Shown here: positions 17,609-59,026 of the stretch, in pieces
Position numbering within the stretch: the stretch's first letter is position 1
Layout of the letters: every line of letters begins with the position of its first letter
Assembly (NCBI RefSeq): GCF_003946175.1
Contig: NZ_RHOK01000005.1
Span: 62,001 to 126,000, forward strand
Origin: Lacticaseibacillus suibinensis
Lineage (GTDB): Bacteria; Bacillota; Bacilli; Lactobacillales; Lactobacillaceae
DNA: 64,000 nucleotides
Direction of reading: 5' to 3'
Notes under the pieces: model-generated
The model's input: the letters and a program-made list of their open reading frames with translations, nothing else
Told to the model about the DNA's origin: nothing
Databases searched by the model: none
Position numbers and translations under genes: made by a program

Positions 17609-17700
17609 AAAAGGCTGCGGAGCGGGGCGTACTTAGGATGATGGCTAGCCAGCTGGCGTAGCTAATCACTCAGGCGTTGGCCTCACGTAGCGCGACTACA
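17609..17700 (+). repeat. branched repeat family 2, copy A (hairpin-less)
   Basis: Starts AAAAGGCTGCGGAG and ends near GTAGCGCGACTA, matching the other family members. The central apical hairpin is missing: TAGCCAGCTGGCGTAGCTA joins directly. It faces copy B in the recR-yaaL gap, so the gap as a whole is bounded by inverted AAAGGCTG ends. Confidence 0.75.
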
Positions 17701-17727
17701 ATGAAAGACCAGAAATCGACCGCAATC

Positions 17728-17853
17728 TAGTTGCGCTGCGGTCGGCAACGCTCGAGCGACTAGCTACGCTCCGAGCCTCATCGGCAAAGTACGCCGACAA
17801 TGCTCAGAGCTAGGCTACTCGTCGAGCTAAGCCCGCCGACCTCCACAGCCTTT
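17728..17853 (-). repeat. branched repeat family 2, copy B
   Basis: Read on the minus strand it begins AAAGGCTGTGGAG, eight bases after the recR stop, and ends GCAGCGCAACTA. Helices: GGTCGGC/GCCGACC, GCTCGA/TCGAGC, and an apical hairpin with TGAGC/GGCTC and GTCGGC/GCCGAT. It is full length, about 126 bases. Confidence 0.85.
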
Positions 17854-17861
17854 GACCTCGC

Positions 17862-18461
17862 CTATATTTCCGTCCGCCCTTCAACGGCCTTTAGCAGGGT
17901 CATTTCGTCGGCATACTCAATATCTGACCCCACGGCCAAGCCATGGGCTAGGCGCGTGACTTTGATTTGGGCCGGTTTGATCAACCGGGCTAGGTACTGG
18001 GCGGTGGCTTCGCCTTCTGGGGTGGCGTTGGTGGCCACAATCACTTCTTTGACTTCCGGATGCTTTTGCAGGCGGTTGATCAGGCTTTCGATGTTGAGGT
18101 CTTCCGGTCCGCGGCCTTCGATGGGACTGAGCACGCCATGGAGGACATGGTACAAGCCATGGTATTCGTTGGTGCGGTCAATGCTCATGACATCTTTAGG
18201 CTGCTCCACCACGAGAATGGTGGTTTGGTCGCGGCCTTGATCCTGGCAGATTTCACACGGGTCATCATCGGTGATGTTGCCGCAGATGCTGCAGTAATGC
18301 AGCTTCGACTTGGCATCCGTCAGACTGGTGGCAAAGGCTTCAACGTCATCTTTGTTCATATCAATGGTGTAAAACGCCAGGCGGGTGGCAGTCTTACTCC
18401 CAATGCCAGGCAACTTCATGTAGCTGGCAATTAGTTTTTCGATCGGTGCAGGATATTGCAT
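17862..18461 (-). CDS. recR: recombination protein RecR
   Basis: Ring-forming DNA clamp that loads RecA with RecF/RecO at gaps. The 199 residues hold the HhH segment [14 protein letters not shown], the four-cysteine zinc finger [16 protein letters not shown], and a Toprim domain beginning [16 protein letters not shown] and containing [16 protein letters not shown]. It lies 8 bases after ybaB, the usual dnaX-ybaB-recR operon. Confidence 0.98.
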
Positions 18462-18469
18462 GTTGCCTC

Positions 18470-18778
18470 CTAGCCCGGTAGGCCGCGGGTGTACTTGCCC
18501 ATTTTGGCCTTGGTGGCATCATCGACTTGCTTCAAGCCAGCATTAACGGCTTCCAGCACCAGGTCTTGGAGCATGTCAGGATCGTCAGGGTCAATGGCCT
18601 CAGGTTTGATCTGGATGTCTTTCAGCGTTTTGTCGCCTGCAAACACCACCGTCACCATGTCACTGGCGGAAGTCGCCGTGAATTCAGTGGCATTGAGTTC
18701 GTCTTGGGCCTGAGTCATTTCTTTTTGCAGCTTTTGCATTTGTTTCATCATGCCAGCCATATTGCCGCCACGCATCAT
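18470..18778 (-). CDS. YbaB/EbfC nucleoid-associated protein
   Basis: Small DNA-binding dimer, 102 residues from the ATG giving [16 protein letters not shown]. The Met/Gln-rich N-terminal helix and the strand region [19 protein letters not shown] followed by [17 protein letters not shown] are diagnostic. A GTG three codons earlier is an alternative start. It lies between dnaX and recR as in most bacteria. Confidence 0.95.
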
Positions 18779-18793
18779 ATCAATCACTCTTTC

Positions 18794-20476
18794 CTAGTCG
18801 TTTTTAATCGTAATGTTGTCTTGGCCGAACAAGTCGGTCATCGTTTTTACCACCGGCGGCACTGCTGCCGGCTGCGGCGCCGCGTGCGGCGCGCCGTTTT
18901 CTGCCAGATAGGCTTTGCGCACGCGCGGCCATTCGTCTTGCTGCACGAGGACAATCTGTTTCGGACTGCCCATCAGCTTCGCCAGGTCATCCTTCAGCGC
19001 TGCCAGCAGGTTAGCGTCGTTGCTGGCGCGTTCGACAAAAATGTCATAAGCAAAACTGACAATCACGCCTTCAGGACTGGCCGCCACGGGCTTGGACACC
19101 TTCATCATGGCCTGATCTGGGACCGACAGCATGGACAAAAGATCGGGCCAAATGTCACGCACTGCTTCTAGGTCGTGCTTGGTGGCGGCACCCAGTACCG
19201 GATAAATCTGGGCCTTGTTGACTTTGACCGGCTTGGCTTTTGGCTTCGGCTTGGCCGCCGGGGCTTGCCCGCCGGCTTGCAGGTTCTGCACCAGCTGAGT
19301 CAACCGCGAAACCTCGCCTTCCAACTTGGTCACAGCGGAAGCATCCGCAGGGGCGGCCTGAGCCGCTGCTACTGGCGCGGCGGTCTGAGTCGGCACCGGC
19401 TGCCCCAGCTGCACCGTTGCCACTTCCAGGTACAAGGTGGGACTATTGGTCAGCCGCAGCTGCCCTTGGGTTTGGTTGAGCACCGCAATCATCTGGTACA
19501 GCTGGCTTGGGGCAAAGCTGGCGGCTAGCGCCTTAAAGTGCGTGTCTTGCAATGCACTGGCGGTGTCGTTGACTAAGGTCGGGGCCTGCTGGTACACCAG
19601 CAGGTCGCGCAGGTAGCCAATCAAATCATCAATCAGGCGCCCGGCGTCCTTGCCGCTTGCCAGCAGCTGTTCGATGGTGGTCAGCGCCGCCGCAGTATCA
19701 TGATTCGCCAAATGCTGGAGGTATTCCCCTAGCTGGGTTACCGCTGCCCCGCCGGTGACATCCAAAGCATTTTCCACGGTGACGTGATCCTGCCCAAAAG
19801 CGAGCACCTGATCCAGGATGGATAGCGCATCGCGCATGCCGCCTTCTGCCGCCTTGGCAATCACCAGCAAGGCTTGGTCATCATAGGTGATGCCTTTTTC
19901 GTCTAGGATATGCTTCATCCGGTCGACAATATCTTGCGGCGTGATCCGGCGAAAATCGAACCGCTGCGTCCGCGAAATAATGGTGGCTGGGATTTTTTGC
20001 GGCTCGGTGGTGGCCAAAATGAACACCACATGCGCCGGCGGTTCCTCCAAAGTCTTCAGCAAGGCATTGAACGCGCCGGTCGACAGCATGTGGACTTCGT
20101 CGATGATGTAAACTTTGACTTTCGCGGCGGTCGGCGCGTACTTGGCCTTGTCGCGAATGTCCCGGATTTCGTCGACCCCGTTGTTTGACGCCGCATCGAT
20201 TTCAATCACGTCAGTTAAGCTGCCATTATTGATGGCGACACATAAGTCGCAGGTATTATCCGGCTCGCCGTCTTCCAGATGGCGGCAGTTCAGCGCCTTG
20301 GCCAAGATTTTCGCCACACTGGTTTTCCCGGTGCCGCGGGGCCCGCAGAAGAGATAAGCGTGGCTGGTTTGGCCGGTAATCAGCGCATTTTTTAAAGTCG
20401 TGGTGATGGCCGTTTGCCCAATCACATCGGCGAAGGTTTGAGGTCGCCACACCCGATACAACGCTTGATAAGCCAC
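18794..20476 (-). CDS. dnaX: DNA polymerase III subunits gamma and tau
   Basis: Clamp-loader ATPase, 560 residues. It starts at GTG 20476 (MAYQALYRVWRPQTF), with AAGGA about 8 bases before. The reading frame continues upstream but is not family-like. It has Walker A GPRGTGKT (45-52), a zinc module CRHLEDGEPDNTCDLC, Walker B VYIIDEVHML and sensor I ATTEPQKIP. The C-terminal part has an Ala/Pro-rich linker (AAPVAAAQAAPADAS, then KPKPKAKPVKV) and a tau-like tail. I did not see a classical A-run slippage site. Confidence 0.97.
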   Translation of the reverse strand: MAYQALYRVWRPQTFADVIGQTAITTTLKNALITGQTSHAYLFCGPRGTGKTSVAKILAKALNCRHLEDGEPDNTCDLCVAINNGSLTDVIEIDAASNNGVDEIRDIRDKAKYAPTAAKVKVYIIDEVHMLSTGAFNALLKTLEEPPAHVVFILATTEPQKIPATIISRTQRFDFRRITPQDIVDRMKHILDEKGITYDDQALLVIAKAAEGGMRDALSILDQVLAFGQDHVTVENALDVTGGAAVTQLGEYLQHLANHDTAAALTTIEQLLASGKDAGRLIDDLIGYLRDLLVYQQAPTLVNDTASALQDTHFKALAASFAPSQLYQMIAVLNQTQGQLRLTNSPTLYLEVATVQLGQPVPTQTAAPVAAAQAAPADASAVTKLEGEVSRLTQLVQNLQAGGQAPAAKPKPKAKPVKVNKAQIYPVLGAATKHDLEAVRDIWPDLLSMLSVPDQAMMKVSKPVAASPEGVIVSFAYDIFVERASNDANLLAALKDDLAKLMGSPKQIVLVQQDEWPRVRKAYLAENGAPHAAPQPAAVPPVVKTMTDLFGQDNITIKND

Positions 20477-20776
20477 TGTCCTCATCCTTTCTATCTGTTC
20501 TAGTTTACCATACGCGACCAGGCTCCGGCGCCGCATTTATGCTCACTGCCAGGAAAAGTCACGCGGGGTAAATTCGTGATCGTTCAGCCGGCTAAACCAT
20601 GCAAATCTTTGCCCACACCGAGGAGATTTGCTCATGTAACGTTACTGATGCCGTCATCCCTGGCCCTTGCTGGTGGCCGGTCGGTTGGGCTGTGGGCCGG
20701 GTCTGGCAGGCGTTTACGGTGGCGAGACCGTTGATCATTGGTGCCTGGTGGTGCAAGGTCTTGGTTTAAAGGCACA
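20477..20776. other. gene-free, hairpin-rich spacer
   Basis: Between dnaX and the SRP RNA terminator no credible gene is seen. The sequence contains several short dyads: GCAAATCT (20601-20608) with AGATTTGC (20624-20631), ACGGT with ACCGT (20716-20731), and a GC-rich stretch (20650-20710) able to fold on itself. It may be a decayed member of the branched repeats described elsewhere, but I found no copy to compare. The dnaX promoter probably lies at its left edge (TGG-TAAACT near 20505). Confidence 0.5.
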
Positions 20777-20806
20777 GAAAAGGACGCCTCGACAAGGAGA
20801 CGTCCT
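20777..20806 (-). terminator. terminator after the SRP RNA
   Basis: Minus strand AGGACGTCTCC, a five-base loop, GAGGCGTCCT, then TTTTC. Confidence 0.75.
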
Positions 20807-20819
20807 GTTGATTGACTCA

Positions 20820-20914
20820 AAAACTTAAGGCACATGACAAACGATTCTTAGTGCTGCTTCCTTCCGGACCTGACACAATTCGAAAGGCTGCCATTGCCTC
20901 AAGGCCTTTCGGCA
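20820..20914 (-). ncRNA. ffs: signal recognition particle RNA (small type)
   Basis: The minus strand carries the invariant SRP domain IV, TGTCAGGTCCGGAAGGAAGCAGCA, split here as TGTCAGGTCCGG and AAGGAAGCAGCA. It closes with flanking helices CTTGAGGCA (near 20903) and TGCCTTAAG (near 20824), followed by TTTTT. A TATACT -10 box at 20921-20926 predicts the 5' end near 20914. The position upstream of dnaX is typical for Firmicutes. Ends are estimated to within a few bases. Confidence 0.93.
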
Positions 20915-21006
20915 AAATCTAGTATACACGAAACCCTAAGCCTTGACTAGTCTGCATCGCAGAACCATTAATCGCTGCTCCGGACCAGTTCATCAATATT
21001 TTGTAA

Positions 21007-21129
21007 TTAGGCCGCCGCCTTGGTTGCGGCAGCCAAATTCCCCGCTTCCAGCACCTGATACTGACTGGCAAAAAAGGCTGCCATGCTGGCGCGCAGGCCT
21101 GGCTCGTCTTCCACAATCAGGATTTTCAT
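21007..21129 (-). pseudogene. truncated response regulator receiver fragment
   Basis: A 40-codon frame begins MKILIVEDEPGLRASMAAFF, the exact start of an OmpR-type receiver domain: the beta1 strand, the acidic pair Glu-Asp and helix 1. It continues with QYQVLEAGNLAAATKAA and stops at TAA before the phosphorylated aspartate. No receiver or DNA-binding sequence follows. It has its own Shine-Dalgarno sequence (GGAGGG, six bases before the ATG), and the ATG overlaps the tadA stop (ATGA). It therefore looks translated but cannot be a working regulator. It is probably the 5' remnant of a deleted two-component gene. Confidence 0.75.
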
Positions 21130-21626
21130 GGCTGTCCCTCCTGCCGGGCCTTTTTCGCTGCCTTGCGTTGCGCGCGAATGCCCCGGAAAAAGTCCTGCAG
21201 CAATGCCGCCGCTTCCGCTTGTTTGACGCCGGCCACCACCTCAACTTGGTGGTTGAACCGCTGATCTGCGAGCAAATCCACCAGCGTGCCAGCGGCGCCC
21301 GCTTTGGGGTCTGGGGCCCCGTAGTAACAACGACGTAGGCGACTGTTGATCATCGCGCCGGCGCACATCGGGCATGGCTCCAGTGTGACATACAAATCGC
21401 AATCTTCCAGCCGCCAGCTGCCCAAGGTCATGCAGGCTTCTTGAATGGCTAAGATTTCGGCATGCAGCGTGCTGTCCTGGCTGTGTTCGCGCAGGTTATG
21501 CCCGCGCCCTACCACCTGACCCTCATGCACAATCACCGCCCCAATCGGCACTTCGCCAATCAGGCCGGCGTCGCGGGCTTCTTCTAGCGCGAGGTCCATG
21601 TAATGCTCGGATTCTGATTGGTTCAT
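21126..21626 (-). CDS. tadA: tRNA-specific adenosine deaminase TadA
   Basis: Deaminates A34 of tRNA-Arg(ACG) to inosine. It starts at ATG 21626 (MNQSESEHYMDLALEEA), with AAAGGAG six bases before; 166 residues. The zinc deaminase motifs HAEILAIQEA and PCPMCAGAMINSRL are intact, with Glu as proton shuttle. The C-terminal basic tail is normal. Its stop overlaps the start of the truncated receiver fragment. Confidence 0.97.
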   Translation of the reverse strand: MNQSESEHYMDLALEEARDAGLIGEVPIGAVIVHEGQVVGRGHNLREHSQDSTLHAEILAIQEACMTLGSWRLEDCDLYVTLEPCPMCAGAMINSRLRRCYYGAPDPKAGAAGTLVDLLADQRFNHQVEVVAGVKQAEAAALLQDFFRGIRAQRKAAKKARQEGQP

Positions 21627-21650
21627 GAGCGGCTCCTTTCGCAATCAACG

Positions 21651-22256
21651 CTAGGCCGTTGGTTTCGTGGCCCGCAAAATATAATACCCGTGGGCCATCT
21701 TCAGCTTTTCGGCTTGGCCAAAAGTGGCCTGCATCAGCTTCAAAGCCGACGGGGCGCCTTGCTTTTTCTGGAGCACGGCATAGAGCTGGCCGCCTGGCAG
21801 CAAATGCGCAAGGGCCCCTTCCAGAATGGCCGAAACAATCGCTTTGCCGGCGCGAATCGGTGGGTTCGTGACAATGACGCCAAATTGCCCGTCAATCGCA
21901 TCGTATACCGACGATTCAACAATAGTGACATTAGCGATTTGGTTCGCTTCGGCATTGCGTTTGGCTAGGCCCAAAGCGCGTTCGTTCACATCGCTCATCA
22001 CCACTTGCCGCTCTGGATACTGCTTGGCCAAGGCCAAACCAATTGGACCGTAGCCACAGCCAACATCTAAAATTGGCCCGGCTGGCAGGGTTTGTTCGAC
22101 CACGGTGTCAATCAGTACCCGGCTGCCAAAATCCACCGTGTGCTTGGAAAACACCCCGTTATCGGCGGTGAACCGCAACGGATGGCCAGCTAGGGTAAAG
22201 TTGAATTCGTGTTCATCATGCGCGAGGTCAGGATCATTTTCATAATAATGGGACAT
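21651..22256 (-). CDS. class I SAM methyltransferase (RsmC/YbxB-like)
   Basis: A 201-residue methyltransferase of the MTS family that includes the 16S rRNA G1207 enzyme RsmC and B. subtilis YbxB. Motif I is ILDVGCGYGPIGLALA, and the catalytic motif is NPPIRAGK, typical for guanine N2 methylation. The N-terminal FTADNGVFSKHTVDFGSRVLID is also family-specific. It starts four bases after mprF and precedes tadA in the same direction. The target is inferred only from the family. Confidence 0.88.
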   Translation of the reverse strand: MSHYYENDPDLAHDEHEFNFTLAGHPLRFTADNGVFSKHTVDFGSRVLIDTVVEQTLPAGPILDVGCGYGPIGLALAKQYPERQVVMSDVNERALGLAKRNAEANQIANVTIVESSVYDAIDGQFGVIVTNPPIRAGKAIVSAILEGALAHLLPGGQLYAVLQKKQGAPSALKLMQATFGQAEKLKMAHGYYILRATKPTA

Positions 22257-22259
22257 GTT

Positions 22260-24881
22260 TTACCTCTCAGTTCGTTGGACCAAGTCACTGATCCGATTGA
22301 TTTTAGCCAAGCGGCGCGTCAGGTAGCTGCCTTCCTTGCGCTGATCCACGCGCTGGTTCACCAGCAGCAGAATTTGCAGCAAAGTGAACAACAGCGAATT
22401 GCGCTTGCGATACGCGACATACTTGGGCACCCACTTGGTGACATATTTGTTCTTATATGAGCGTAACCCCTGGAAGCCATAAAAGCGATACCCATATTGG
22501 TAAACCAAATGCGCCAGTTTCTCTTCAAAAAAGGAATACGAGGAAGTGCCGACATTGGCCAGTGGCGCCATCCCCATGTTGAAGTACTGATAGCCGTCTG
22601 CTTGGGCCTGCTGGAACAAGTTGATAAAGATGCCATCCATGATGCCACTTGGGGCGGCTTCGCTGGAGCGCATCAGGTCGATGCTGGTCGTTTGGCCATC
22701 ATGCATCGGCATGGCCGAAGCAAAGGCCACGATTTGGTCCGCTTGGTCTTTGATGACCGCCACCGGCGCCGTGTTCAGATAATCGGCATCGAAAAAGCCG
22801 AGCGAAAAGCCTTTTTCCGGGCGGCCTTCCAGCCAACTATCTGATACCTGCTTAAGTGCCGCAAGGGTCTCGGCACTAAACGGGGGCTTGAGCCACTCGT
22901 AAGTGTACCCTTCACGCTCAAATTTGTGCATCAAAGCGCGCTCCCCTTTGCGCTTGGTGCCTGCTAAGGTGAAGTTGGTCACATCCACATCACCTTCTTC
23001 CCCGAACTTCATGAAGTCAAACCCATACTCATGCAGCAGCATCGTCAGCTGCTCGGAGATTTCGTAGAAGACCAGCGTCAAGTCATTGCGGTCAGCAGCG
23101 ACCATGAAATCGGCAATGGCGGGGCCAATTTGGTCCGGATCACCGATTGGCTCCCCAAGTATCACGATTTTATCGGTTTTCTTACGATACAGGAAGAACA
23201 CCCGGTCCTCGCCGGCCACCTGATAGAAACGCAACTTTTTATCGCCGGTGAAGGCCAAATGTGAAATTTCATTGCCGCCGTATTGCGCCAGCACCGCCTT
23301 GACTCGCGCCACATCAAGGTCAACGCCAAGATTGGGCTTCGGGTTGGACAGATAGTGATAAATCACGCCCAGCGTCAGCGCCGCCACCAACACCCCAACA
23401 AAAGTGGAAAACCACATCCGCTCTGACGGAAAGAGGAAGACCTGTGGCACTGGCCGGCGATGGTGAATATTGGGCACATTGTAGAACAACGCCAGCGCAT
23501 AAAACAGCGCCGTCATCCCGAAAATACCGGCATCAACGAGTCGATTCCCCCAAGGAAAATCCATCCGGTCGCGGGTCAATTCCTTGCGCGCGAATACCGC
23601 CGCCACGAGAATGACCGCCAGAAAAAGGATGAAGCGCAAGCTATACTCACGCATCAGCGAGCCACCCAAGGCCAGCAACAGCACGATGACCGTCGGCGCG
23701 TAAGCCTTTTTGACCCGATTAGCAATGCCGCGAGCAAAACCGAAAATGATAAAGGCCATCATGATATTGGTGACCCGGCTCAAAAACAGGAAGGTGTATG
23801 GGTACAGCCGCACAAACACGTGGTTCTTCATTGCCGACACCGGAATAATGCCACGCAGCAGCAGCATAATGGCGGAGAAATACAGGAAGACCACCAGCAC
23901 GATATGTGCCACTTTCCGCACCACTTGTAGCGGCAGGCCTTCGAGTTCGGCATTCAATCGGCGGCCAGCATCCTGCAGAAACAAGCCGATCCCAATCAGG
24001 AAAGGAATCACATAGTAGAACAACCGGTAAAACAGCAACCACACCGCCGCTAGGTTATTGTTCACGCCAAGCTGGGTCAGCCCCAGCAACATGAACACAT
24101 CAAAAGAGCCCAAGCCCCCTGGCACCATCGAAATCACGCCGAGCACATTGGCCACCATGAACAGCGGCAGCACATGGGCCAAGTTGATTGGCACATGCAT
24201 AAAGCCGCCGATGGCCAGAAAGAATAACGCGCAGCCGCCCCACTCCAGAAAAGAGCTGAGGGTCAAGCTGAGCTGGCGGCGGATGGGCATGTCAGCAAAG
24301 AAGCGTTGGTTGGACAGATGCGTCACCACCATCAGCACCGGAAAATACATGGCCCCGCCAATCAACCAAATCCAGTAATCCGAGAACATTTGCCCGATGC
24401 CTAGCCCAAAAATCAGCAGCAGCGCCAAAATGGACCACAGCGACAGCCCTGCCAGCAGAAACAAGGCGATTTTGGAAATAGCCACCAGAATTTGCTTGTT
24501 GGTCGCTTTATCGTGATAATAATTCGCCCGCAAACTGGCCCCTAAAAAGCCGCCAAAGCCGGCGATATTGGTGAAGGAATTCACCACCCAGCCCGACCGC
24601 ACCACATACAGTGGCTTAAAGTCACCAGGCAGCATTTTGGTGATGGTAAAGTCGTAATTCAGCATCGGTACCACCGCCACCAACCCCAGCGCCGCCATGG
24701 CTAGCAGCGACTGCGGACTTTGTGACGCTAAGCTCGCCCGCATTTGCGCCCCACTCAGCTCGCGGCCGATTCGGCCCAGTTCGATGATCACAAACACCAA
24801 CACTGACAACACAAATAGCACCTTCAGCAAGGTCAGGTGCTTGCGAATCCCATCGACAATTGATTGTCCAAACTTCTTCAT
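22260..24881 (-). CDS. mprF: phosphatidylglycerol lysyltransferase MprF
   Basis: Bifunctional membrane protein (873 residues) that aminoacylates phosphatidylglycerol using aminoacyl-tRNA and flips the product outward, lowering the negative surface charge and giving resistance to cationic peptides. The N-terminal half (about 1-530) has many hydrophobic helices, with the conserved VPGGLGSFDVFMLLGL segment of the flippase. The C-terminal half is the cytosolic GNAT-like synthase domain, with GEPIGDPDQIGPAI and MDLMR-like IDLMRSSEAAPSGIMDGI. GGAGGG lies four bases before the ATG. Specificity (Lys or Ala) cannot be read. Confidence 0.95.
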   Translation of the reverse strand: MKKFGQSIVDGIRKHLTLLKVLFVLSVLVFVIIELGRIGRELSGAQMRASLASQSPQSLLAMAALGLVAVVPMLNYDFTITKMLPGDFKPLYVVRSGWVVNSFTNIAGFGGFLGASLRANYYHDKATNKQILVAISKIALFLLAGLSLWSILALLLIFGLGIGQMFSDYWIWLIGGAMYFPVLMVVTHLSNQRFFADMPIRRQLSLTLSSFLEWGGCALFFLAIGGFMHVPINLAHVLPLFMVANVLGVISMVPGGLGSFDVFMLLGLTQLGVNNNLAAVWLLFYRLFYYVIPFLIGIGLFLQDAGRRLNAELEGLPLQVVRKVAHIVLVVFLYFSAIMLLLRGIIPVSAMKNHVFVRLYPYTFLFLSRVTNIMMAFIIFGFARGIANRVKKAYAPTVIVLLLALGGSLMREYSLRFILFLAVILVAAVFARKELTRDRMDFPWGNRLVDAGIFGMTALFYALALFYNVPNIHHRRPVPQVFLFPSERMWFSTFVGVLVAALTLGVIYHYLSNPKPNLGVDLDVARVKAVLAQYGGNEISHLAFTGDKKLRFYQVAGEDRVFFLYRKKTDKIVILGEPIGDPDQIGPAIADFMVAADRNDLTLVFYEISEQLTMLLHEYGFDFMKFGEEGDVDVTNFTLAGTKRKGERALMHKFEREGYTYEWLKPPFSAETLAALKQVSDSWLEGRPEKGFSLGFFDADYLNTAPVAVIKDQADQIVAFASAMPMHDGQTTSIDLMRSSEAAPSGIMDGIFINLFQQAQADGYQYFNMGMAPLANVGTSSYSFFEEKLAHLVYQYGYRFYGFQGLRSYKNKYVTKWVPKYVAYRKRNSLLFTLLQILLLVNQRVDQRKEGSYLTRRLAKINRISDLVQRTER

Positions 24882-25012
24882 AACGCCCTCCGTTCCTGTT
24901 TATTATAACGGAGGTTGACCTTGTGCCAGCTAACAATAGTGTTATACGGCGGCTTCAGTTTGTAATTCGCCTGGGGAATTCGTACAATCAAAGCAGAGAT
25001 GGAGGCAGTACA

Positions 25013-25798: not shown

Positions 25799-25805
25799 GC
25801 CCCTT

Positions 25806-25832
25806 AGCCGAGCGAAAATGCTCGGCTTTTTT
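25806..25832 (+). terminator. terminator after the lipoprotein gene
   Basis: AGCCGAGC, six bases, GCTCGGCT, then TTTTT. Confidence 0.92.
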
Positions 25833-25856
25833 GTACTTTTTTGTATCCGGAGAATC

Positions 25857-25889
25857 AAAAAAATCGCCAGCTGATCGCTGACGATTTTT
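25857..25889 (-). terminator. rplJL terminator
   Basis: Minus strand AAATCG-CAGC, a short loop, GCTG-CGATTT, then a T run. Confidence 0.88.
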
Positions 25890-25903
25890 GGGTAGACGCC
25901 TGA

Positions 25904-26839: not shown

Positions 26840-26879
26840 TGATTTTCACCTCCTGTAGTTTGGTTGGGGTTTTTCGCAT

Positions 26880-27000
26880 AAAAAAACTCCATGTCTACCA
26901 AGACATAGAGGTATCTAACGAACTGATACCACCTCGGCAGGATATTAAGGCTTGCGCCACCTGAGTCTTAGGCAGAGTGAATAATCACAAAAGGTAGCGT
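26880..27000 (-). promoter_or_regulatory. ribosomal protein L10 leader with attenuator
   Basis: Minus strand: GCCTAAGACTCAGGTGG, then CTTAATATCCTGCCGAGG and a helix GGTATC/GATACC, the usual L10 leader layout. A terminator hairpin follows (CTCTATGTCTT with GACATGGAG, then seven T, 26880-26911), just before rplJ. Binding of the L10(L12)4 complex would favour termination. Confidence 0.85.
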
Positions 27001-27700: not shown

Positions 27701-27721
27701 GCCACCCGCGGCCGTATCGAC

Positions 27722-47620: not shown

Positions 47621-47649
47621 CTTTGGCTAAAACTGGAATGACGCTTCAG

Positions 47650-47729
47650 GCCTCGCCGCCAAAAATCGGTGGCAACCCATCTGGCTAGGCTAATCATCCG
47701 GCTAAAGGCGGCCATGCTCCACAGCCTTT
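47650..47729 (-). repeat. branched repeat family 2, copy C (3'-truncated)
   Basis: Minus strand begins AAAGGCTGTGGAG and runs through GCCGGA, TAGCCTAGCC and the apical hairpin, then ends before the return strands. A 47-base block (47659-47705) is identical to one in copy D (47789-47835), so it is a tandem partial duplication 130 bases apart. Confidence 0.8.
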
Positions 47730-47730: not shown

Positions 47731-47859
47731 TTAGTTGCGCTGCGGTAAGCCAACGCCGGAGTGATTAGCTACGCCAGCTGGCCCGCCACCAAAAATCGGT
47801 GGCAACCCATCTGGCTAGGCTAATCATCCGGCTAAGAGCGGCTTACCTCCACAGCCTTT
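47731..47859 (-). repeat. branched repeat family 2, copy D
   Basis: Minus strand begins AAAGGCTGTGGAG only two bases after the sigma-factor stop and ends GCAGCGCAACTAA. Helices: GGTAAGCC/GGCTTACC, GCCGGA/TCCGGC and an apical GCCACC/GGTGGC hairpin. All three are fully paired and all differ in sequence from copies B and E. Confidence 0.88.
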
Positions 47860-51339: not shown

Positions 51340-52861
51340 ACATCTGACTCAGCAAAATCAATCGCATCAGGACCAACCCATGGTCAAAGACATCGCCTTA
51401 GACCGCTGGTTCACTGGTGCGGATTTAGATCAAGACATTGAAGCCCTCAAGGCAGGCTGGCAAGAAGCAGGCCTTAGCCGCGGCGATGTGTTGATGGTGT
51501 GTTTGCCAAATTCGGCTGCGTTTATCCCGATTGACCAAGCCGCTTGGCAAGTGGGAATCGCGGTGCATCCAGTCTCCCCGACCAGCCCGGCCAGTGAACT
51601 GCTCGCCGACCGCGATGAGCATCACTATGCCGCCATGCTCCTACTGCCAGACATGGCCGCTCAGGTGATGCGTGATTCCTTCACCCAACAAGCGGTGACG
51701 CTGGCCACCCTGCCGACTGCCACGCTGGTGGTCGCACCGGCTGATTGCGGGCCGGCCCAAACTGGCCCAGTGACTGAAAACGACCTGGCGCTGATTTTGG
51801 CCACCAGTGGCACCACTGGCAAGCCTAAGCGCGTTGGCCTGTCGCAGCGCCTGATTTTTAACGCCGCCACGCATGACGCCCAAAGCAACGACATGCATGA
51901 AGACTCAGTGGCGTTGATCACCATGCCGATGTTTCATATCAACGCCCAAGTCATGGTGGCTTTGGCGATGCGCATGGCCGATGGCAAACTCGTGATTGCG
52001 CCGAAATTCTCGGCTTCGCGTTTCTGGAATTGGGTGGCCGATAACGGCGTCAACTGGACGTCAGTAGTGCCGACAATTGTAGGCATTCTGCTGCTAAACG
52101 AAACCGCCAATCAGGTCTACCATCAGCGTCGCACCGAGATTAATCTGATGTTCACGCGGTGCAGCTCGTTTGCCTTGCCAGAAGATCAGCTCCGCACCTT
52201 CCAAAACCGCTTCAACACCCATGTCATCGAAGGCTACGGCATGACCGAATCCGCCAGCCAGTGCACGATTAACCCGCTGGAAGCCCCGAAAATTGGCTCG
52301 GCGGGCAAGCCCTTTGGCACCAAAGTCAAAATCCGCCAGCAAGATGGCACGCTCACTACTGCGCCTTCCGTGCTGGGTGAAATTGTCATTGCCGGCGATC
52401 ATGTCATCGATCAATACATGGATCCGCATGCCGATGCGTTTGCTGATGGGTGGTTTTTAACTGGCGATTTGGGCTACTTTGACGAAGATGGCTATCTCTT
52501 TGTCAAAGGCCGCGCCAAGGAAATCATTTCCCGTGGCGGCGAAAAAGTGGCGCCGGCCCATGTCGAAAACGTGCTCGACGAACTGCCCTTCATCGCCCAG
52601 CTGTGCGTCATCGGCCTGCCCGACCCACTCTACGGCGAAGAAGTCACGGCAGCGATTATTTCTACCACGCCTGGCGAAAACGAGGAAGAGCAGCGCCAAA
52701 CTGTGCTTGAATACGGCCGCGCCCACCTAGCGAAGTATGAAGCACCCACCAAAGTGATGTTTTTGGATGAATTTCCCCGCAATCAAACCGGCAAAGTGCT
52801 GCGGCCAATGCTCAAGCAATGGCTGAAGGAGGGCGACCATGTCACACAAACCGCGCTTTAA
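51323..52861 (+). CDS. AMP-forming acyl-CoA/acyl ligase
   Basis: ANL-superfamily adenylating enzyme, 512 residues. It has P-loop LATSGTTGKPKRV, motif GYGMTESASQ, the hinge GDLGYFDEDGYLFVKGRAKEI, SRGGEKVAPAHVE and the C-terminal catalytic lysine in RNQTGKVLR, all intact. It starts within the acyltransferase 3' end, with AAAGGAG nine bases before. The substrate may be a fatty or small carboxylic acid, and the thiol acceptor (CoA or a carrier protein) is not evident. No carrier protein is encoded beside it. Confidence 0.9.
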   Translation: MTPLNKHLTQQNQSHQDQPMVKDIALDRWFTGADLDQDIEALKAGWQEAGLSRGDVLMVCLPNSAAFIPIDQAAWQVGIAVHPVSPTSPASELLADRDEHHYAAMLLLPDMAAQVMRDSFTQQAVTLATLPTATLVVAPADCGPAQTGPVTENDLALILATSGTTGKPKRVGLSQRLIFNAATHDAQSNDMHEDSVALITMPMFHINAQVMVALAMRMADGKLVIAPKFSASRFWNWVADNGVNWTSVVPTIVGILLLNETANQVYHQRRTEINLMFTRCSSFALPEDQLRTFQNRFNTHVIEGYGMTESASQCTINPLEAPKIGSAGKPFGTKVKIRQQDGTLTTAPSVLGEIVIAGDHVIDQYMDPHADAFADGWFLTGDLGYFDEDGYLFVKGRAKEIISRGGEKVAPAHVENVLDELPFIAQLCVIGLPDPLYGEEVTAAIISTTPGENEEEQRQTVLEYGRAHLAKYEAPTKVMFLDEFPRNQTGKVLRPMLKQWLKEGDHVTQTAL

Positions 52862-53822
52862 AATTGCTTTGCTGCTCTTGGCGCTAGTCGCCTGGCTAGC
52901 GGTGGCGGTGTACGGCTACACCCAAACGATCACCTCTACCAGTAGCGACGGCAAGAAGCTGACGCGCGTGGTGGTCGGTTATCAAAAAGTCGACCCAGCG
53001 GATATTTCCCGCCAGCGCGGCGAACTCGCCAAGAAGATGAAGGCCAAAGGTTACAAGGTCGTCTTCAAGGAATTTCAAAGCGGTGCCGCCTTGATGACTG
53101 CGCTGAAGTCCGGCAACATCGACTATGCGCGCTTAGGTGACACCCCACCAGTCGTTAACCAAGCCAGTGGGTTGGATCTCGTCTATATTGGCGCCGGGGC
53201 CTCGAAGGAATATGGGACCGGCGTGCTGGTGGGCAAAAACTCCGGCATCACTTCGATTAAGCAGCTCAAAGGCAAGCGCATTGCCTACGCCAAAGGCACC
53301 GCTGCCGAGTTCACCATTATTCAAGTGCTTGCCAAGGCTGGTTTGACCACCAAAGATGTCACACTGGTCAACATGGACCAAGGCGCCGCCAGTGTCGCTT
53401 TTGCCAAAGGTAACGTCGATGCCTGGGTCACCTGGGATCCTTACACCGCCACCGCCCAAGTGCAACAAGATGCGAAGCTGCTGACCAATGCTAAGGGTCT
53501 GGCGATGAACCGGGACTTCGTGGTCGCAACGCGTAAGTATGCGAAGAACCACACCAAAGTCTCCAGCTTGTTGATTAAGTACATGGGCCAAGATATGACT
53601 TGGGCGACCAAACACCCCACTGAGCTGATCGATATGCTGAGCAAAACCCTGAAACTGTCGAAGAAGATTATGAAGCTCACCGTGGAGCGCCGCACCTTCT
53701 CGATGGCGCCAGTCACCGATGCGATTGTTGCCGAACAGCAAAAAATCGCCGATGTCTTCTATGAACAAGGCATCATCACCAAGAAAATTGACATCAATGA
53801 CGCGCTACTTGATTCGAAGTGA
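52839..53822 (+). CDS. ABC transporter substrate-binding protein, SsuA-like
   Basis: Extracytoplasmic receptor of the sulfonate/nitrate/taurine family, 327 residues. There is an N-terminal hydrophobic segment (about 8-28) but no lipobox cysteine, so it is anchored by an uncleaved helix or secreted. KSGNIDYARLGDTPPVV and KGTAAEFTIIQVLAKAGL are the ligand-loop segments. A WVTWDPYTATAQ segment follows, as in SsuA. It overlaps the ligase end by 23 bases and closes the operon. Confidence 0.9.
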   Translation: MSHKPRFKIALLLLALVAWLAVAVYGYTQTITSTSSDGKKLTRVVVGYQKVDPADISRQRGELAKKMKAKGYKVVFKEFQSGAALMTALKSGNIDYARLGDTPPVVNQASGLDLVYIGAGASKEYGTGVLVGKNSGITSIKQLKGKRIAYAKGTAAEFTIIQVLAKAGLTTKDVTLVNMDQGAASVAFAKGNVDAWVTWDPYTATAQVQQDAKLLTNAKGLAMNRDFVVATRKYAKNHTKVSSLLIKYMGQDMTWATKHPTELIDMLSKTLKLSKKIMKLTVERRTFSMAPVTDAIVAEQQKIADVFYEQGIITKKIDINDALLDSK

Positions 53823-53835
53823 CATCTGCCAAATC

Positions 53836-53876
53836 AAAATGACCAGCCAAGATTTTACTTTGGCTGGTCATTTTTT
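53836..53876. terminator. bidirectional terminator
   Basis: AAAATGACCAGCCAA, nine bases, TTGGCTGGTCATTTTTT: a 15-bp perfect stem shared by the acyl/ABC operon and the convergent yacP. Confidence 0.93.
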
Positions 53877-54414
53877 ATTGATCTTGATCTGGATGCCGCG
53901 TGAGCTTGCGCCGCGCTTTATCCAGCTTGCGTAGCTGCTCATTACTCCAAGGGGTGTTGCGCTTGCTTTCTCGCATGATGAACGGGTCGGTGGAATGGGT
54001 GAACTCGCGGTTCGACCGGGCAATTTCGCCGAGGAACTCGCGTGAAGAAATCCGCAGCGCACCGCGTGAAAACACCGTCCACTGTTCGGCCTGATCAGAA
54101 GTGACCACGGTGAGCTGTACCAGCGGCGTATTCAGATCATTGGCCAAGCGCTCGATATAGCTATCGGCGGTTTCATCCTGCTGGGTGAACACCACTTTGA
54201 ACTGCCACTTATCGTAGCTTTCGCCGATGCCGGGCACATACATCGCGTCAAACACCACAATGATCTCCGCGTCTTCATGCGCCCGGTACTCGGCAATTTC
54301 GTCTAGCAACTGATCGCGCGCGGCGTCAAAATGACCGGTGGCTTTGAGCTTGGCCAATTCCGGCCAATTACCAATCACATTGTAGCCATCCACAATCAGC
54401 AGATGCCGGCGCAT
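53875..54414 (-). CDS. yacP: NYN domain RNase, YacP/Rae1 family
   Basis: PIN-like endoribonuclease, 179 residues. B. subtilis YacP (Rae1) cleaves mRNA in the ribosomal A site. The start LLIVDGYNVIGNWPEL and the acidic AEIIVVFDAM and VVTSDQAEQ hold the metal-binding aspartates. The start codon directly follows the rlmB stop. Last gene of the cysS-mrnC-rlmB-yacP operon. Confidence 0.94.
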   Translation of the reverse strand: MRRHLLIVDGYNVIGNWPELAKLKATGHFDAARDQLLDEIAEYRAHEDAEIIVVFDAMYVPGIGESYDKWQFKVVFTQQDETADSYIERLANDLNTPLVQLTVVTSDQAEQWTVFSRGALRISSREFLGEIARSNREFTHSTDPFIMRESKRNTPWSNEQLRKLDKARRKLTRHPDQDQ

Positions 54415-55206
54415 TTATTTGCCTCCACGGCTGGTAAAGCCTTGATACATCAAGATGCCGGCGGCGACACTGGCATTGAGGCTTTGCACGTGCCCCACCA
54501 TCGGAATGGTCAAGGTGGCATCCATCAATTTGGCAATCCCCGGGGAAATGCCTTTCCCTTCGTTGCCAATCACCAGGGCGATACTGCCGGTGGCATTCCA
54601 CTGGCGGAAGTCTTGGCCATCCATGGCGGTGCCGAAGATCCAAACCCCTTTATCCTTGAGCTTCTTGATGGTTTGGGCCAAATTCGTCACCCGCGCCACT
54701 GGCACATGCTCAATCGCCCCAGTGGAGACCTTCGCCACGGTGCTGGTTAAGCCAACCGCGCGGTGTTTGGGAATGATAATGCCATCCACGCCAATCGCAT
54801 CGGCTGTCCGCAAAATCGAACCGAGGTTTTGCGGGTCTTCCAAGTTATCCAAAATCACAAAGAACGGGTCGTGCCCCTCGGCGTGTGCGAACAGCTCATC
54901 CAAAGTGGCATAAGCGTATGGCGTCATCGCCACCATCACGCCTTGGTGATTGCCGCCATCAGTCAGCAGATCCAGCTTAGTCTTCGGCACCTGGCTGACC
55001 AGAATCTTTTGCTTTGTTGCTTTATCGACAATCGCCCGCACCGGATCGCTGTTCAGTCCGTTTTGGACGAACAGCTTGTTGATGGTTTTGGCACTCCCAT
55101 TTTTCAGCGCCTCGGCCACAGCATGGCGGCCGAAAACGAATTCATCTTCATGCGCCTGATCCTTGGGCTGACTGCGATGGGCTTCACTTGGTCTTGAATT
55201 GGCCAT
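54415..55206 (-). CDS. rlmB: 23S rRNA 2'-O-methyltransferase RlmB (TrmH family)
   Basis: SPOUT methyltransferase for G2251 of 23S rRNA, 263 residues from ATG 55206 ([13 protein letters not shown]), with GAAGGAGGG before it. It has [12 protein letters not shown] at the start of the substrate-binding domain, and knot motifs [25 protein letters not shown] and [18 protein letters not shown]. The first 30 residues are a charged extension. It overlaps mrnC by 23 bases. Confidence 0.96.
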
Positions 55207-55606
55207 GGCCTGTCCCTCCTTCTTCGACAAATGCGATGCACCAGGCGGCAAGCTCATCGATGCGCGCCGTTTGGGCGGTTAACTTCAGATAGCCAAACAA
55301 CGCTTCAAACCCGGTAGAAATGCGGTACGTCACGACATCCGTATGTTTCGCGTGGGTGTAACTTTTGGCGTTACGCCCGCGTTTGAAATAGTTCCATTCT
55401 GCTTCAGACAGCAGGTTTTGGTTTTCCATTTCGCCAATCAGCGCCGCTTGGGCTTTGGCCGACACGAAACTTTTCGCCGCCTTTTGCAGCTGGCTGGGCC
55501 GCACTAACCCGCGGTCCAACAAGTGCTCGCGCACGTAGACTTCATACACGGCATCCCCCAAGTACGCCAGGGCAATGCCATTCAATTGTTTTGCGTCAGC
55601 TGTCAT
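55184..55606 (-). CDS. mrnC: mini-ribonuclease III
   Basis: Processes 23S rRNA ends, 140 residues. The start is the ATG at 55606, which shares ATGA with the cysS stop. [19 protein letters not shown] is the RNase III catalytic helix with Asp, and the second acidic site is in [18 protein letters not shown]. It lacks the dsRNA-binding domain, as expected. Confidence 0.95.
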
Positions 55607-57006
55607 TTGCGGCGCCACCTCGTTCCTTGTGCGGTATCATCCAGTAAAATTCCTTGGGCCTGCAGGTCGTCGCGAATCTGGTCACTCAAGGCAAAATCCT
55701 TGGCGGCGCGGGCGGCATTGCGCTTTTCAATCAAGGCTTCGACATCGGCATCCAGCAGCTCGGCTTGGAACTGCACGCCGAAAATCGCCAGCCACTGCGC
55801 CTGCAAGTCGAGTAGCGCCTGCAGGGTGTCGGCGTAAACCGTATCGGCGCCGGCGACTTCATTCATCAGCTTGGCCAAATCGTAAACCACAGCTAGGCCA
55901 TTTTGCACGTTGATGTCGTCATCCATGGCCCCGATAAAGGCCGCTTTGAGGCTGGCCAACTGGGCCATCACCTCAGCACTGCTGCCAGGCTGGGCGCCTT
56001 GCTGCCGGTAGGCCACAGCATCGCGGGCAATTTTCAGCCGTTCGAGATTGCGGGCGGCTTCCTTGAGGCCGGCTTCAGAATAGCGAATTGGCCGGCGGTA
56101 CTGCGTGCTGGCCATCAAAAAGCGCAGCGTCTGGGGATCAACCGTTTTGACGATCTCATGCACCGTGATGAAGTTACCCAGTGACTTGCTCATTTTTTCG
56201 TCAGCTTCCCCGATGGTCACGAAGCCGTTGTGCATCCAGTAGTTGACGAACTTCTTACCGGTAGCGGCTTCACTTTGGGCAATTTCGTTTTCGTGGTGCG
56301 GGAATTCTAGATCCTGGCCGCCACCATGAATGTCGATCGTATCGCCTAGCAAGGTCGTACTCATCACGGAGCATTCAATGTGCCAGCCTGGCCGACCTTG
56401 GCCCCAAGGCGAGTCCCAAGCAATTTCACCGGGCTTGGCCGCTTTCCACAAGGCAAAATCGATGGGATCTTCCTTGCGGGCGGTTTCGGCATCGGCCACA
56501 TGCTGGGAGGCGCCTTGCTCCAGCTCGTCGACGTTTTTGTTGGCCAGCTCGCCATAGTGCTTGAACTTGCGGGCACGATAATAGACATCGCCTTCGGATT
56601 CATAGGCATAACCCTTGGCCATCAGGCGCTCAACGAAGCTAATGATTTCCGGAATCATTTGGCTGGCGCGAGGATGCGCCGTGGCCGGTTCGATGTTCAG
56701 CTTGCCAGTGTCGGCCATGAAGGCATCAATGAAGCGTTGCGCTAAGTCGAGCGGCGCCTCGCCGGTTTCATGGGCGGCGTTGATGATTTTATCATCAACA
56801 TCGGTGAAGTTTGAGACGTACTTCACCTTGTACCCGCGATACTCGAAGTACCGCCGAATGGTATCAAAGGCAATCGCCGAGCGGGCATTGCCGATGTGAA
56901 TATAGTTGTACACCGTGGGGCCACAGACATACATACTGATTTCCCCTGGTTTGATCGGTGTGAATGGTTCTTTTTGCCGCGTGAGCGTGTTATATAGTTG
57001 CAGCAT
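55603..57006 (-). CDS. cysS: cysteine-tRNA ligase
   Basis: Class I aminoacyl-tRNA synthetase, 467 residues from ATG 57006 ([15 protein letters not shown]), with AGGGGG before it. It has zinc-binding and HIGH motifs [22 protein letters not shown] in [12 protein letters not shown] and [21 protein letters not shown]. In B. subtilis cysE lies between gltX and cysS; no cysE is present here. No T-box leader was seen upstream. Confidence 0.98.
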
Positions 57007-57069
57007 TTTGTCGCCCCCTATGTCTCTTGTATCATACTCGAAAACCCGCATCGTTGCTAGTTGCGCTGT

Positions 57070-58830
57070 TTATTCAGCCGCCAGTGCTTCAAGGAAAATC
57101 GCCCCGTATTTGTCGACTTTGACCTGACCCACGCCTTTGACATTGAGCATCTGGGCTTCGGTTTGCGGCCGCAGCAAGCACAACTGCCGCAGCGTTTCGT
57201 CAGAGAAAATCACATAGGGCGGCACGCCTTGCTTTTGCGCTAAGTCGTAGCGCAAACTGCGCAGCTGCTGGAACAACTCGTCATCCACCGGCAGCGACTG
57301 GCGCGCCTTGACGGCCTGCTTACGCATCACTGTGGCCTCGCCGCGCAGCACCTGCGCGCCCAGCTCTGTCAGTCCCAGGGTCGGATACTGACCGCCCTGG
57401 GGCATGAGATAACCATCAGCCGTCAGAAAGTCGATAAAGCCACTGATGTCTTTTTTCCGCCAACTGCTTAGCAAGCCGTAAGTGGACAACTGCTCCAGCC
57501 CGAGTTGCGTCAAGCGCCGACTTTTAGAGCCTGCCAGCACATCAGCAATCAGGCCCTTGCCGTAGCGGCCATGCATCCGCGCCACGCAGGACAACGCCTT
57601 TTGGGCATCCAGCGTCACATCCACGGCTTCGCGGTCGTCTCGGCAATTCGAACACTGGCCGCAGGGCTGTGAGGCCTGTCCGAAATACTGCAGGATGAAT
57701 TGCTGGAGACAATCGCCGGTGTTGGCGTATTGGTTCATCACCTGCAGTTTGCGGTATTCGTTTTGCTTGTAGGCGTCATCGCCTTCGCTTTGATCAATGA
57801 AGAAGCGGCGAATTTGCAAATCCGCCGGGGCAAACAGCAAAATCGCTTCACTGGGCAACCCGTCTCGCCCGGCGCGCCCGGCTTCTTGATAATAAGACTC
57901 AAGGTCGCCTGGCACCTGGGCGTGAATGACAAAGCGCACGTTGCTTTTATCAATCCCCATCCCAAAGGCGTTCGTCGCCACCATCACCGGCTTGCGATCA
58001 AAGAGAAAGTCTTCCTGATTGGCCGTGCGTTCCTGCTCGGACAGCCCCGCATGATACTTGGTCACGGCAATGCCTTGGCGGTCCAATAGCAAAAACAGCC
58101 GCTCAACTTCCTTCCGGGTGGCACAGTAGACAATGCCACTTTGCGTTTGGTTGAGCTTCAGGTAGTCGAGCAAAAAGGCATCCTTGTCCTGGCCCTTCAC
58201 CACCTGAAAGCTCAGATTTGGCCGGGAAAAGCCAGTGTTGATCATCCCGGCTTCCGGAATGTTCAGGCGCTGGCCAATATCTAGCGCCACCCGCGTCGTC
58301 GCCGTAGCGGTCAACGCAATGACGGTCGGGTGCGACGGCAGCGCGGCAGCGATGGTTTGCAGCTGCAGGTAGCTCGGCCGAAAATCATGGCCCCACTGGG
58401 AAATACAGTGCGCCTCGTCCACCGCCAGCAAATCGATTTGCAAGCTGGCTAAGTCCTGTTGGAAATCCGGCATCTCCAGCCGCTCTGGCGCCACATACAG
58501 CAGCTTTACCTCACCACGCGCCGCCATATCTAGCCGGTGCTGGGCCTCTGGATAAGCCACGGTGCTGTTGATGTAAGTCGCAGGAATGGCATTTTCATTG
58601 AGGGCATCGACCTGATCCTTCATCAAGGCAATCAAAGGCGACACCACCACCGTCAGGCCGCTTTGTAGGAGCGCCGGCACCTGATAACACAGCGACTTCC
58701 CGCCACCAGTGGGCATGATGACCAGCGTATTCTCATGCGCTAAGACGCGTTCAATCGCTTGGCCTTGACCCGGCCGGAACTCATCGTAGCCGAATTTCTC
58801 TTTTAAAATACGCTGCGCCGCACTAGCCAT
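57070..58830 (-). CDS. recQ: ATP-dependent DNA helicase RecQ
   Basis: 3'-5' helicase in recombination repair, 586 residues. It has Walker A PTGGGKSLCYQVPAL, DEAH box VDEAHCISQWGHDF, motif IV and VI region FVIHAQVPGDLESYYQEAGRAGRDG, zinc cluster CLQQF..QPCGQCSNC, winged helix and a C-terminal HRDC domain (about 510-586). It is monocistronic, beside a branched repeat. It is not part of the conserved gltX-cysS neighbourhood. Confidence 0.97.
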   Translation of the reverse strand: MASAAQRILKEKFGYDEFRPGQGQAIERVLAHENTLVIMPTGGGKSLCYQVPALLQSGLTVVVSPLIALMKDQVDALNENAIPATYINSTVAYPEAQHRLDMAARGEVKLLYVAPERLEMPDFQQDLASLQIDLLAVDEAHCISQWGHDFRPSYLQLQTIAAALPSHPTVIALTATATTRVALDIGQRLNIPEAGMINTGFSRPNLSFQVVKGQDKDAFLLDYLKLNQTQSGIVYCATRKEVERLFLLLDRQGIAVTKYHAGLSEQERTANQEDFLFDRKPVMVATNAFGMGIDKSNVRFVIHAQVPGDLESYYQEAGRAGRDGLPSEAILLFAPADLQIRRFFIDQSEGDDAYKQNEYRKLQVMNQYANTGDCLQQFILQYFGQASQPCGQCSNCRDDREAVDVTLDAQKALSCVARMHGRYGKGLIADVLAGSKSRRLTQLGLEQLSTYGLLSSWRKKDISGFIDFLTADGYLMPQGGQYPTLGLTELGAQVLRGEATVMRKQAVKARQSLPVDDELFQQLRSLRYDLAQKQGVPPYVIFSDETLRQLCLLRPQTEAQMLNVKGVGQVKVDKYGAIFLEALAAE

Positions 58831-58896
58831 CGTTTCTCCCCCGTTTCGTATTAGACTATTCTACCCGCCAAATGAAGCTGTGTAAAACCAGCAAAT

Positions 58897-59026
58897 AAAA
58901 GGCTGTGGAGTGGGGCCGCACTTAGCCCGACAGGTAGCCTAGCCTGAAGCATTACCGCCGTTCTTTGGCGGTGAGGCTTCGGGCGTAGCTAACTGCTCGG
59001 GCGTTGGCCGCACGCAGCGCAACTAT
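58897..59026 (+). repeat. branched repeat family 2, copy E
   Basis: Begins AAAAGGCTGTGGAG and ends GCAGCGCAACTA. Helices: GTGGGGCC/GGCCGCAC (one mismatch), GCCCGA/TCGGGC, and an apical hairpin with TGAAGC/GGCTTC and ACCGCC/GGCGGT. It is full length, between recQ and the GH3 gene. The remainder of the gap up to 59104 shows no gene. Confidence 0.87.

What the first reader, a model, noticed from the sequence alone, without database searches (positions are those of the whole stretch)
17609..59026. Five-copy intergenic repeat whose helices covary between copies
Copies A (17609-17700), B (17728-17853), C (47650-47729), D (47731-47859) and E (58897-59026) share AAAGGCTGTGGAG at the 5' end, TAGCCTAGC, GCGTAGCTA, and GCAGCGCAACTA at the 3' end. 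In full copies B, D and E three helices differ in sequence yet remain paired: GGTCGGC/GCCGACC, GGTAAGCC/GGCTTACC and GTGGGGCC/GGCCGCAC (one mismatch); GCTCGA/TCGAGC, GCCGGA/TCCGGC and GCCCGA/TCGGGC; and GTCGGC/GCCGAT, GCCACC/GGTGGC and ACCGCC/GGCGGT at the apex. Compensatory change of this kind is the mark of selection on a fold, probably RNA. Two copies start 2-8 bases after a stop codon in the sense direction (recR, sigma factor). I know of no named family that it fits.
Basis: seen in the sequence. Interest (0 to 1): 0.82.

Follow-up and report, generated by a model that had tools for sequence, protein, structure and literature searches.

The report
Self-stacking hairpin repeats in lactobacilli genomes
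The five copies belong to a large, apparently undescribed family of 126-base hairpin repeats that have spread through Lacticaseibacillus genomes, pile up head to tail, and keep their folded shape on one strand while their letters change; they look like mobile DNA, and what moves them is unknown.

Summary
Confirmed, and far larger than reported. The window's genome (a Lacticaseibacillus near L. suilingensis) holds at least 95 left ends of this 126-nt unit; 19 of 30 genus genomes carry it. B, D and E are full copies, A is internally deleted, C lacks its 3' side. Covariation is genuine: 19 of 44 pairs exceed a tree-based null, with 2 non-helix pairs, each one base off a helix pair. The fold is selected on one strand: G.T outnumbers A.C 339 to 88, and one wobble is kept in 184 of 201 copies. 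Orientation shows no significant bias towards host transcription or replication, against a cis-regulatory mRNA role. At sites shared with the sister species, 28 of 53 copies lack a close counterpart. Units form head-to-tail arrays; 3'-cut units follow other units and none precedes one; the 5' motif often follows outer 3' ends, sometimes after a 3-4 nt repeat of the upstream flank. Best reading: a non-autonomous mobile hairpin repeat that inserts at the 5' end of resident copies. No enzyme was found; Y1 transposase and reverse transcriptase do not track it. RNA versus ssDNA is unresolved.

The parts
17610..17698 (+). Copy A: degenerate unit, 5' part (17612-17650, model 1-40) joined to 3' part (17654-17698, model 82-125); inverted relative to B in the recR-yaaL gap
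   Evidence: HMM hits; sequence
17728..17853 (-). Copy B: full unit, starts 8 nt after the recR stop codon, same strand as recR
   Evidence: (RNA fold z -5.51)
47641..47729 (-). Copy C: 3'-truncated unit (model 1-87), last in the D-C array
47732..47859 (-). Copy D: full unit, starts 2 nt after the stop codon of a gene with sigma-70 region 2
   Evidence: (z -7.51)
58898..59025 (+). Copy E: full unit between divergent recQ and a glycosyl hydrolase family 3 gene
   Evidence: (z -6.68)

Best explanation
It is a non-autonomous, probably mobile, interspersed repeat. Each unit is one long imperfect hairpin of about 126 nt with unlike ends. A trans-acting factor, not identified, is inferred to recognise the folded strand AGGCTG..CAACTA (as ssDNA or RNA). 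New units go in at the 5' end of resident units, sometimes with a 3-4 nt target duplication, giving head-to-tail arrays that grow at the 5' side and decay at the 3' side; units are also lost by deletion between copies. The fold is kept because only foldable copies spread; resident copies mostly drift. Shown: the family, its fold, strand asymmetry, arrays, replacement of copies, lineage-specific sites, and no significant host-strand bias. Statistically supported but not proven: 5' polarity and short duplications. Inferred: the factor, unit loss by deletion, and that selection acts at mobility.
For: Copy number: 95 left and 83 right ends by exact pattern in 2.56 Mb, 0 for the reversed controls. 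Distribution: 19 of 30 genus genomes, the window's own included. Lineage-specific sites: among 30 species only G000 and G015 have the unit between recR and yaaL (G025 could not be read); in the 12 other species whose short gap was printed it is 14-34 nt with stop and start codons. At the D-C site hegangensis, camelliae and jixianensis have, by eye, only a terminator-like hairpin. Further arrays have both flanks but no array in another species (for example L015 against L101). Strand-specific fold and covariation. Turnover: 28 of 53 copies have no counterpart at 0.85 identity or more in the sister's array although flanks are mostly 87-96% identical. A 93%-identical copy lies at another locus in the sister (L001 and L254). 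Polarity: after setting aside 9 units split by an insert, 31 units lack the 3' part; 22 directly follow another unit, 9 stand alone and none precedes one. 68 of 120 outer 3' ends are followed by the 5' motif (7.5% in shuffles), only 7 of 122 outer 5' ends are preceded by the 3' motif (1.4% in shuffles). Duplications: spacer equals upstream flank in 11 of 35 three-nt spacers (1.25 expected) and 5 of 23 four-nt spacers (0.39 expected). Orientation: tandem-gene contexts 52 same, 61 opposite; GC-skew strand 97 to 104.
Against: No mobilising enzyme or autonomous version was found, and integrases and DDE transposases were not profiled. Most spacers do not match the flank; shared words of 5-7 nt show no excess; the matching inner units could be tandem duplications. 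Up to 12 units lack the 5' part without a visible reason, 9 of them in species with other end types. Pairing is not significantly worse in 3'-most units (p 0.10). In some arrays the 5'-most unit is shared with the sister and an inner or 3' unit differs, which needs differential loss (L002, L008, L020). Among sister-species copy pairs, single changes to or from G.T (31) exceed those to or from A.C (15), which could mean some selection on residents. Those pairs were chosen at 0.86 identity or more, so their divergence is bounded. Orientation against the majority coding strand is 94 same to 74 opposite, p 0.14. No insertion was observed directly.
Confidence: 0.7

Rival explanations
1. Cis-acting RNA element: the unit works in the mRNAs of neighbouring genes (stability, processing, attenuation) and its fold is kept for that.
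For: RNA-like architecture: conserved wobble, conserved internal loops, optional extra arm; two window copies follow stop codons in sense; B lies between recR and yaaL on their strand. Slight excess of changes to G.T in sister copies.
Against: Orientation in tandem-gene contexts 52 same, 61 opposite; contexts 59/14/14 tandem/convergent/divergent against background 221/44/45. Sister copies (20 pairs, chosen at 0.86 identity or more) differ at 5.0% of paired and 6.9% of unpaired positions, near the flank level. The three window sites hold the unit only in G000 and its sister, apart from a possible hit near recQ in G017.
Confidence: 0.1
2. Gene-less cassette arrays: units are folded single-strand recombination sites, comparable in logic to integron attC, added and lost by a host recombinase at the 5' end of arrays.
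For: Strand-specific long hairpin, head-to-tail arrays, 5'-polar growth, replacement of units at fixed sites.
Against: Spacer equal to the target flank in a subset fits staggered insertion better than circle integration; arrays are dispersed, with no single platform; no recombinase was tested.
Confidence: 0.1
3. RNA-mediated spread: the unit is transcribed and copied back by a reverse transcriptase.
For: Wobble tolerance and RNA-like fold; insertion next to its own kind.
Against: RVT_1 matches in 11 of 30 genus genomes do not track the repeat: none in carriers G015, G006, G011, G001, G020 or G021, and only a 91-position piece in G000. Cut units mostly lack the 3' rather than the 5' part (31 against at most 12).
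Confidence: 0.05
4. Mutational artefact: template switching at quasi-palindromes copies one arm onto the other and so creates covariation without selection.
For: Long hairpins are prone to it (general knowledge).
Against: It would erase wobbles, bulges and internal loops. Instead one U.G pair is kept in 184 of 201 copies, and G.T exceeds A.C 339 to 88; the CTA/GTA and TTA/GT loops persist in the alignment.
Confidence: 0.03

Closest known systems
bcr1 (Bacillus cereus group repeat, group A)
   Different: bcr1 is tied to a TTTAT motif; flanks here show no such motif. Tandem arrays, the 5' motif at array ends and species-specific ends did not appear in the passages read; the founding bcr1 papers were not held
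Pneumococcal BOX and RUP
   Same: Small interspersed structured repeats with modular variants, thought mobile (passages of PMC3049150)
   Different: There terminal inverted repeats and significant over-representation between convergent genes; here the ends are unlike and no such excess was seen
ERIC (enterobacterial)
   Same: Size and long imperfect palindrome (recalled; one search shows only an abstract on 127-bp enterobacterial RU-1 units, their identity with ERIC being recalled)
   Different: Different hosts; no sequence comparison was made
REP/BIME with RAYT
   Same: Hairpin repeats in arrays; RAYT recognises single-stranded REP DNA (passages of PMC3733652)
   Different: Unit 126 nt against 20-40 bp (its abstract, listing: title; abstract start); Y1 transposase does not track the repeat
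Integron attC arrays
   Same: Variable sequence with conserved folded strand, head-to-tail, polar growth (recalled)
   Different: No gene cargo, many dispersed arrays, no integrase tested

Membership tests
MITE | Terminal inverted repeats | tested here: not met
   Read from the A1 consensus: 5' AGGCTGCGGAG against reverse complement of the 3' end TAGTTGCGCT; 5 of the first 8 positions agree, mainly the inner TGCG
MITE | Target-site duplication | tested here: inconclusive
   3-4 nt duplications in 16 of 58 copies with 3-4 nt spacers (about 1.6 expected), absent in the rest; one search shows no excess for shared words of 5-7
MITE | Related autonomous element in the same genome | tested here: not met
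   By eye on the exact-pattern lists of left and right ends, no pair frames a kilobase-size element (ends with a mismatch are not listed); no transposase recognised among the 25 largest neighbour clusters, judged from sequence without a family search
REP/RAYT | Y1 transposase (PF01797) in repeat-bearing genomes | tested here: not met
   13 of 30 genomes match, carriers and non-carriers; repeat-rich G014, G006, G011, G001 and G024 have none; G000 and G015 have only pieces, two of the three with stops
Known Rfam RNA | Match to a covariance model | tested here: not met
   No match over the copies at gathering in the window. In 3 loci up to E 5 the only match over a copy is a plant microRNA model at E 2.2, 21.6 bits against a gathering score of 100 (L019)
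Retroelement | Reverse transcriptase in repeat-bearing genomes | tested here: not met
   No RVT_1 match in several carriers
bcr1 | TTTAT motif at boundaries | tested here: not met
   Base composition of 125 outer 5' and 115 outer 3' flanks shows no such motif
Integron attC | IntI integrase and its core sites | not tested
   No integrase search was run
Functional ncRNA | Expressed transcript | not testable with these tools
   No RNA-seq available

The most novel reading that the evidence does not exclude
A dispersed, cargo-free counterpart of integron cassette arrays: a mobile unit that is nothing but its own folded single-strand recognition site, inserts at the 5' end of its own kind, and has diversified by swapping its ends between lineages (three end types on one core) and by gaining or swapping an apical arm.
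Probability: 0.15. Interest if true: 0.85.

Novelty: new variant of a known kind. Interest (0 to 1): 0.58.

Why it matters
Small structured repeats are common in bacteria, yet how such families move is poorly understood (for bcr1 the passages read give only a possible recombination-like route). Here one genus offers hundreds of copies, closely related species with the same array sites but different units, three end types on a shared core, and an apparent insertion polarity. That makes the mover and the role of the folded strand directly testable in harmless lactobacilli. It also warns that strong covariation alone does not show a cellular RNA function.

Tried and rejected
Rejected: Y1/RAYT mobilisation; reverse transcription by a resident RT; cis-regulatory use in the host transcript; mutational hairpin correction. 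Phage or plasmid carriage: no exact pattern match in viral contigs and no blastn match to copy E in the plasmid and phage collections; only copy E and one pattern were tried. A recurring neighbour gene was sought and not recognised in the 25 largest of the clusters from 531 proteins. Duplications of 5-7 nt show no excess. Literature: searches returned no paper; no title listed describes these repeats in this genus; only listings were seen for these, of 403 and 622 papers just 15 each; the library lacks most subscription journals. Superseded: (8 pairs, hit by removal of duplicates) (20 pairs); the 3'-cut count (25 of 27), which separates units split by an insert.

Leads left: integrases and DDE transposases were not profiled. 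A kink-turn was considered by eye for the outer loop and dropped. The CM match in another genus (G031, 1 copy) was not confirmed: the nucleotide HMM has no hit in that locus (one search stopped on it).
Full report
WHAT IS THERE. The five places are real. An end-to-end pattern finds B, D and E, and none of 100 shuffles of the window matches it. A profile built from B, D and E and extended once gives 98 hits in the window plus 36 loci taken around BLAST hits of copy B. In the whole genome (2.56 Mb, 55 contigs) an exact left-end pattern occurs 95 times and an exact right-end pattern 83 times, with 0 for the reversed controls; both are lower bounds.

FOLD. I aligned 68 distinct full copies (of the 98 hits; partial, duplicate and weak hits were left out). 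The consensus is one hairpin of 44 pairs, 31 of them with changes on both sides in at least one copy. 96.4% of cells pair against 78.6% in shuffles, and the covariation score is 0.527 against 0.182; sliding the partner by 1-3 columns drops it to 0.036-0.097. The structure was derived from this alignment, which favours it in the sliding control. On 181 copies (from 201 distinct ones, after dropping gapped copies and those 95% or more identical to another) I wrote a null that evolves substitutions on a FastTree tree, 40 simulations: 19 of 44 helix pairs reach E < 0.05, and 2 non-helix pairs do, each one base off a helix pair. The other 25 pairs do not reach it; many of them hardly vary.

WHICH STRAND. 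Over 201 distinct copies, outside four end or wobble pairs, cells are 7316 Watson-Crick, 339 G.T, 88 A.C and 251 other; the U.G pair at columns 54-74 is kept in 184 of 201. Copies are related, so these are not independent events. On the other strand each G.T becomes an A.C mismatch. So the fold matters on the strand read AGGCTG..CAACTA. This does not tell RNA from single-stranded DNA.

DISTRIBUTION. The model finds the unit in 20 of 60 genomes: 19 of 30 in the genus (three of them with only 2-4 matches), and 1 copy in one of 7 genomes of other genera of the family (not confirmed otherwise); none of 23 genomes of other families in the order has it (counts per genome are capped at 59, and stricter filters were used).

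SITES AND TURNOVER. Of 30 species only G000 and G015 have the unit between recR and yaaL (G025 could not be read). In 12 others the printed gap is 14-34 nt including stop and start codons; for the rest, apart from G007 and G013, the gene coordinates imply a similarly short gap. G007 and G013 have some 590 nt there, which by eye are other hairpin repeats. At the D-C site hegangensis, camelliae and jixianensis have, by eye, only a terminator-like hairpin. Against the sister G015 (flanking matches mostly 87-96% identical, one 80%) the compared sites are occupied in both, but of 53 G000 copies only 25 have a counterpart at 0.85 identity or more, and 28 do not. The sites compared were fetched because they hold copies, so shared occupancy is biased upwards. 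Some copies match another locus of the sister better. In 20 copy pairs (mutual best at 0.86 identity or more, so bounded), paired columns differ at 5.0% and unpaired at 6.9%; single changes are 31 to or from G.T, 15 to or from A.C and 18 between Watson-Crick and other mismatches, with 5 double Watson-Crick changes. So residents look close to neutral, with a possible weak constraint; the changes are not polarised.

ARRAYS AND POLARITY. Units sit head to tail with spacers mostly of 1, 3 or 4 nt or a 1-nt overlap. Of 40 hits that lack the 3' part, 9 are pieces of units split by an insert; of the other 31, 22 directly follow another unit, 9 stand alone and none precedes one. Of 21 hits that lack the 5' part, 8 are split pieces, 1 lies at a locus edge and 12 are unexplained, 9 of these in species with other end types. 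A copy of the 5' motif follows 68 of 120 outer 3' ends (7.5% in shuffles); the 3' motif precedes 7 of 122 outer 5' ends (1.4% in shuffles). Mispaired cells average 1.4 in 5'-most and 2.5 in 3'-most units, not significant (p 0.10, 37 arrays). Of 192 copies 146 are followed by the motif; the spacer equals the upstream flank in 11 of 35 (3 nt) and 5 of 23 (4 nt), expected 1.25 and 0.39, but also 30 of 50 (1 nt, 22.5 expected), 1 of 6 (2 nt), 0 of 5 (5 nt) and 1 of 3 (6 nt); for outermost units 4 of 19 and 4 of 17 at 3 and 4 nt. These tests followed exploratory scans and should be repeated on new genomes.

CONTEXT. In 87 arrays of G000 and G015 the gaps are 59 tandem, 14 convergent and 14 divergent (background 221/44/45, simple ORF caller); copies in tandem gaps run 52 with and 61 against the genes. 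Against GC skew of the locus, 97 of 201 runs lie on the leading strand; against the majority coding strand 94 are the same and 74 opposite, p 0.14. The largest clusters of neighbour genes look like ordinary housekeeping genes.

VARIANTS. Three end types share one core: AGGCTGYG..GCRACTA (window), AAGGTGCGCAG..GCCCRATTA (in L. jixianensis, L. camelliae and L. hegangensis) and CAGAGCG..GCTCGACKA (kribbianus group and others). Some units carry an extra hairpin of about 46 nt at the TAGC/CTA loop (24 of 34 pattern hits lie in or beside a recognised unit on the same strand; some of the other 10 are chance), and one G015 unit seems to have it instead of the usual apex.

READING. The evidence favours a mobile hairpin repeat that targets its own 5' end, with the fold maintained through spread rather than through a cellular job. 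The mover is unknown: Y1 transposases and RT do not track the repeat, and other enzyme families were not profiled. It works like bcr1 or BOX (passages read), but fails MITE criteria on inverted repeats and an autonomous partner, so I do not file it as a MITE.

Noticed in passing
L172 and L170 (recR-yaaL gap in G013 and G007): About 590 nt between recR and yaaL made, by eye, of other, longer hairpin repeats whose stems also seem to covary between the two species; perhaps a further repeat family in the genus.
   Followed up: no
L116:4427-4620, L021:2200-2294 and others: A roughly 46-nt hairpin (CGCATGTCAGCCTGTACG..TACAGGCTGATCA) sits inside units near TAGC, on either arm; it may be a second small mobile module or an optional arm.
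   Followed up: partly
L286 (polyprenyl synthetase gene, G023): An array of, by eye, three units with CAGAGCG..GCTCGACTA-type ends but a different distal domain at the same intergenic site as the window's D-C array, apparently an independent occupation.
   Followed up: partly
L017 and L234: In this array G000's middle unit looks by eye like a fusion of halves of two neighbouring G015 units, and one unit is inverted between the species: units seem to be shuffled and deleted within arrays.
   Followed up: partly
window 11284-11381, 20819-20905, 26872-26990: THF riboswitch, small SRP RNA and L10 leader, all on the minus strand: ordinary known RNAs.
   Followed up: no
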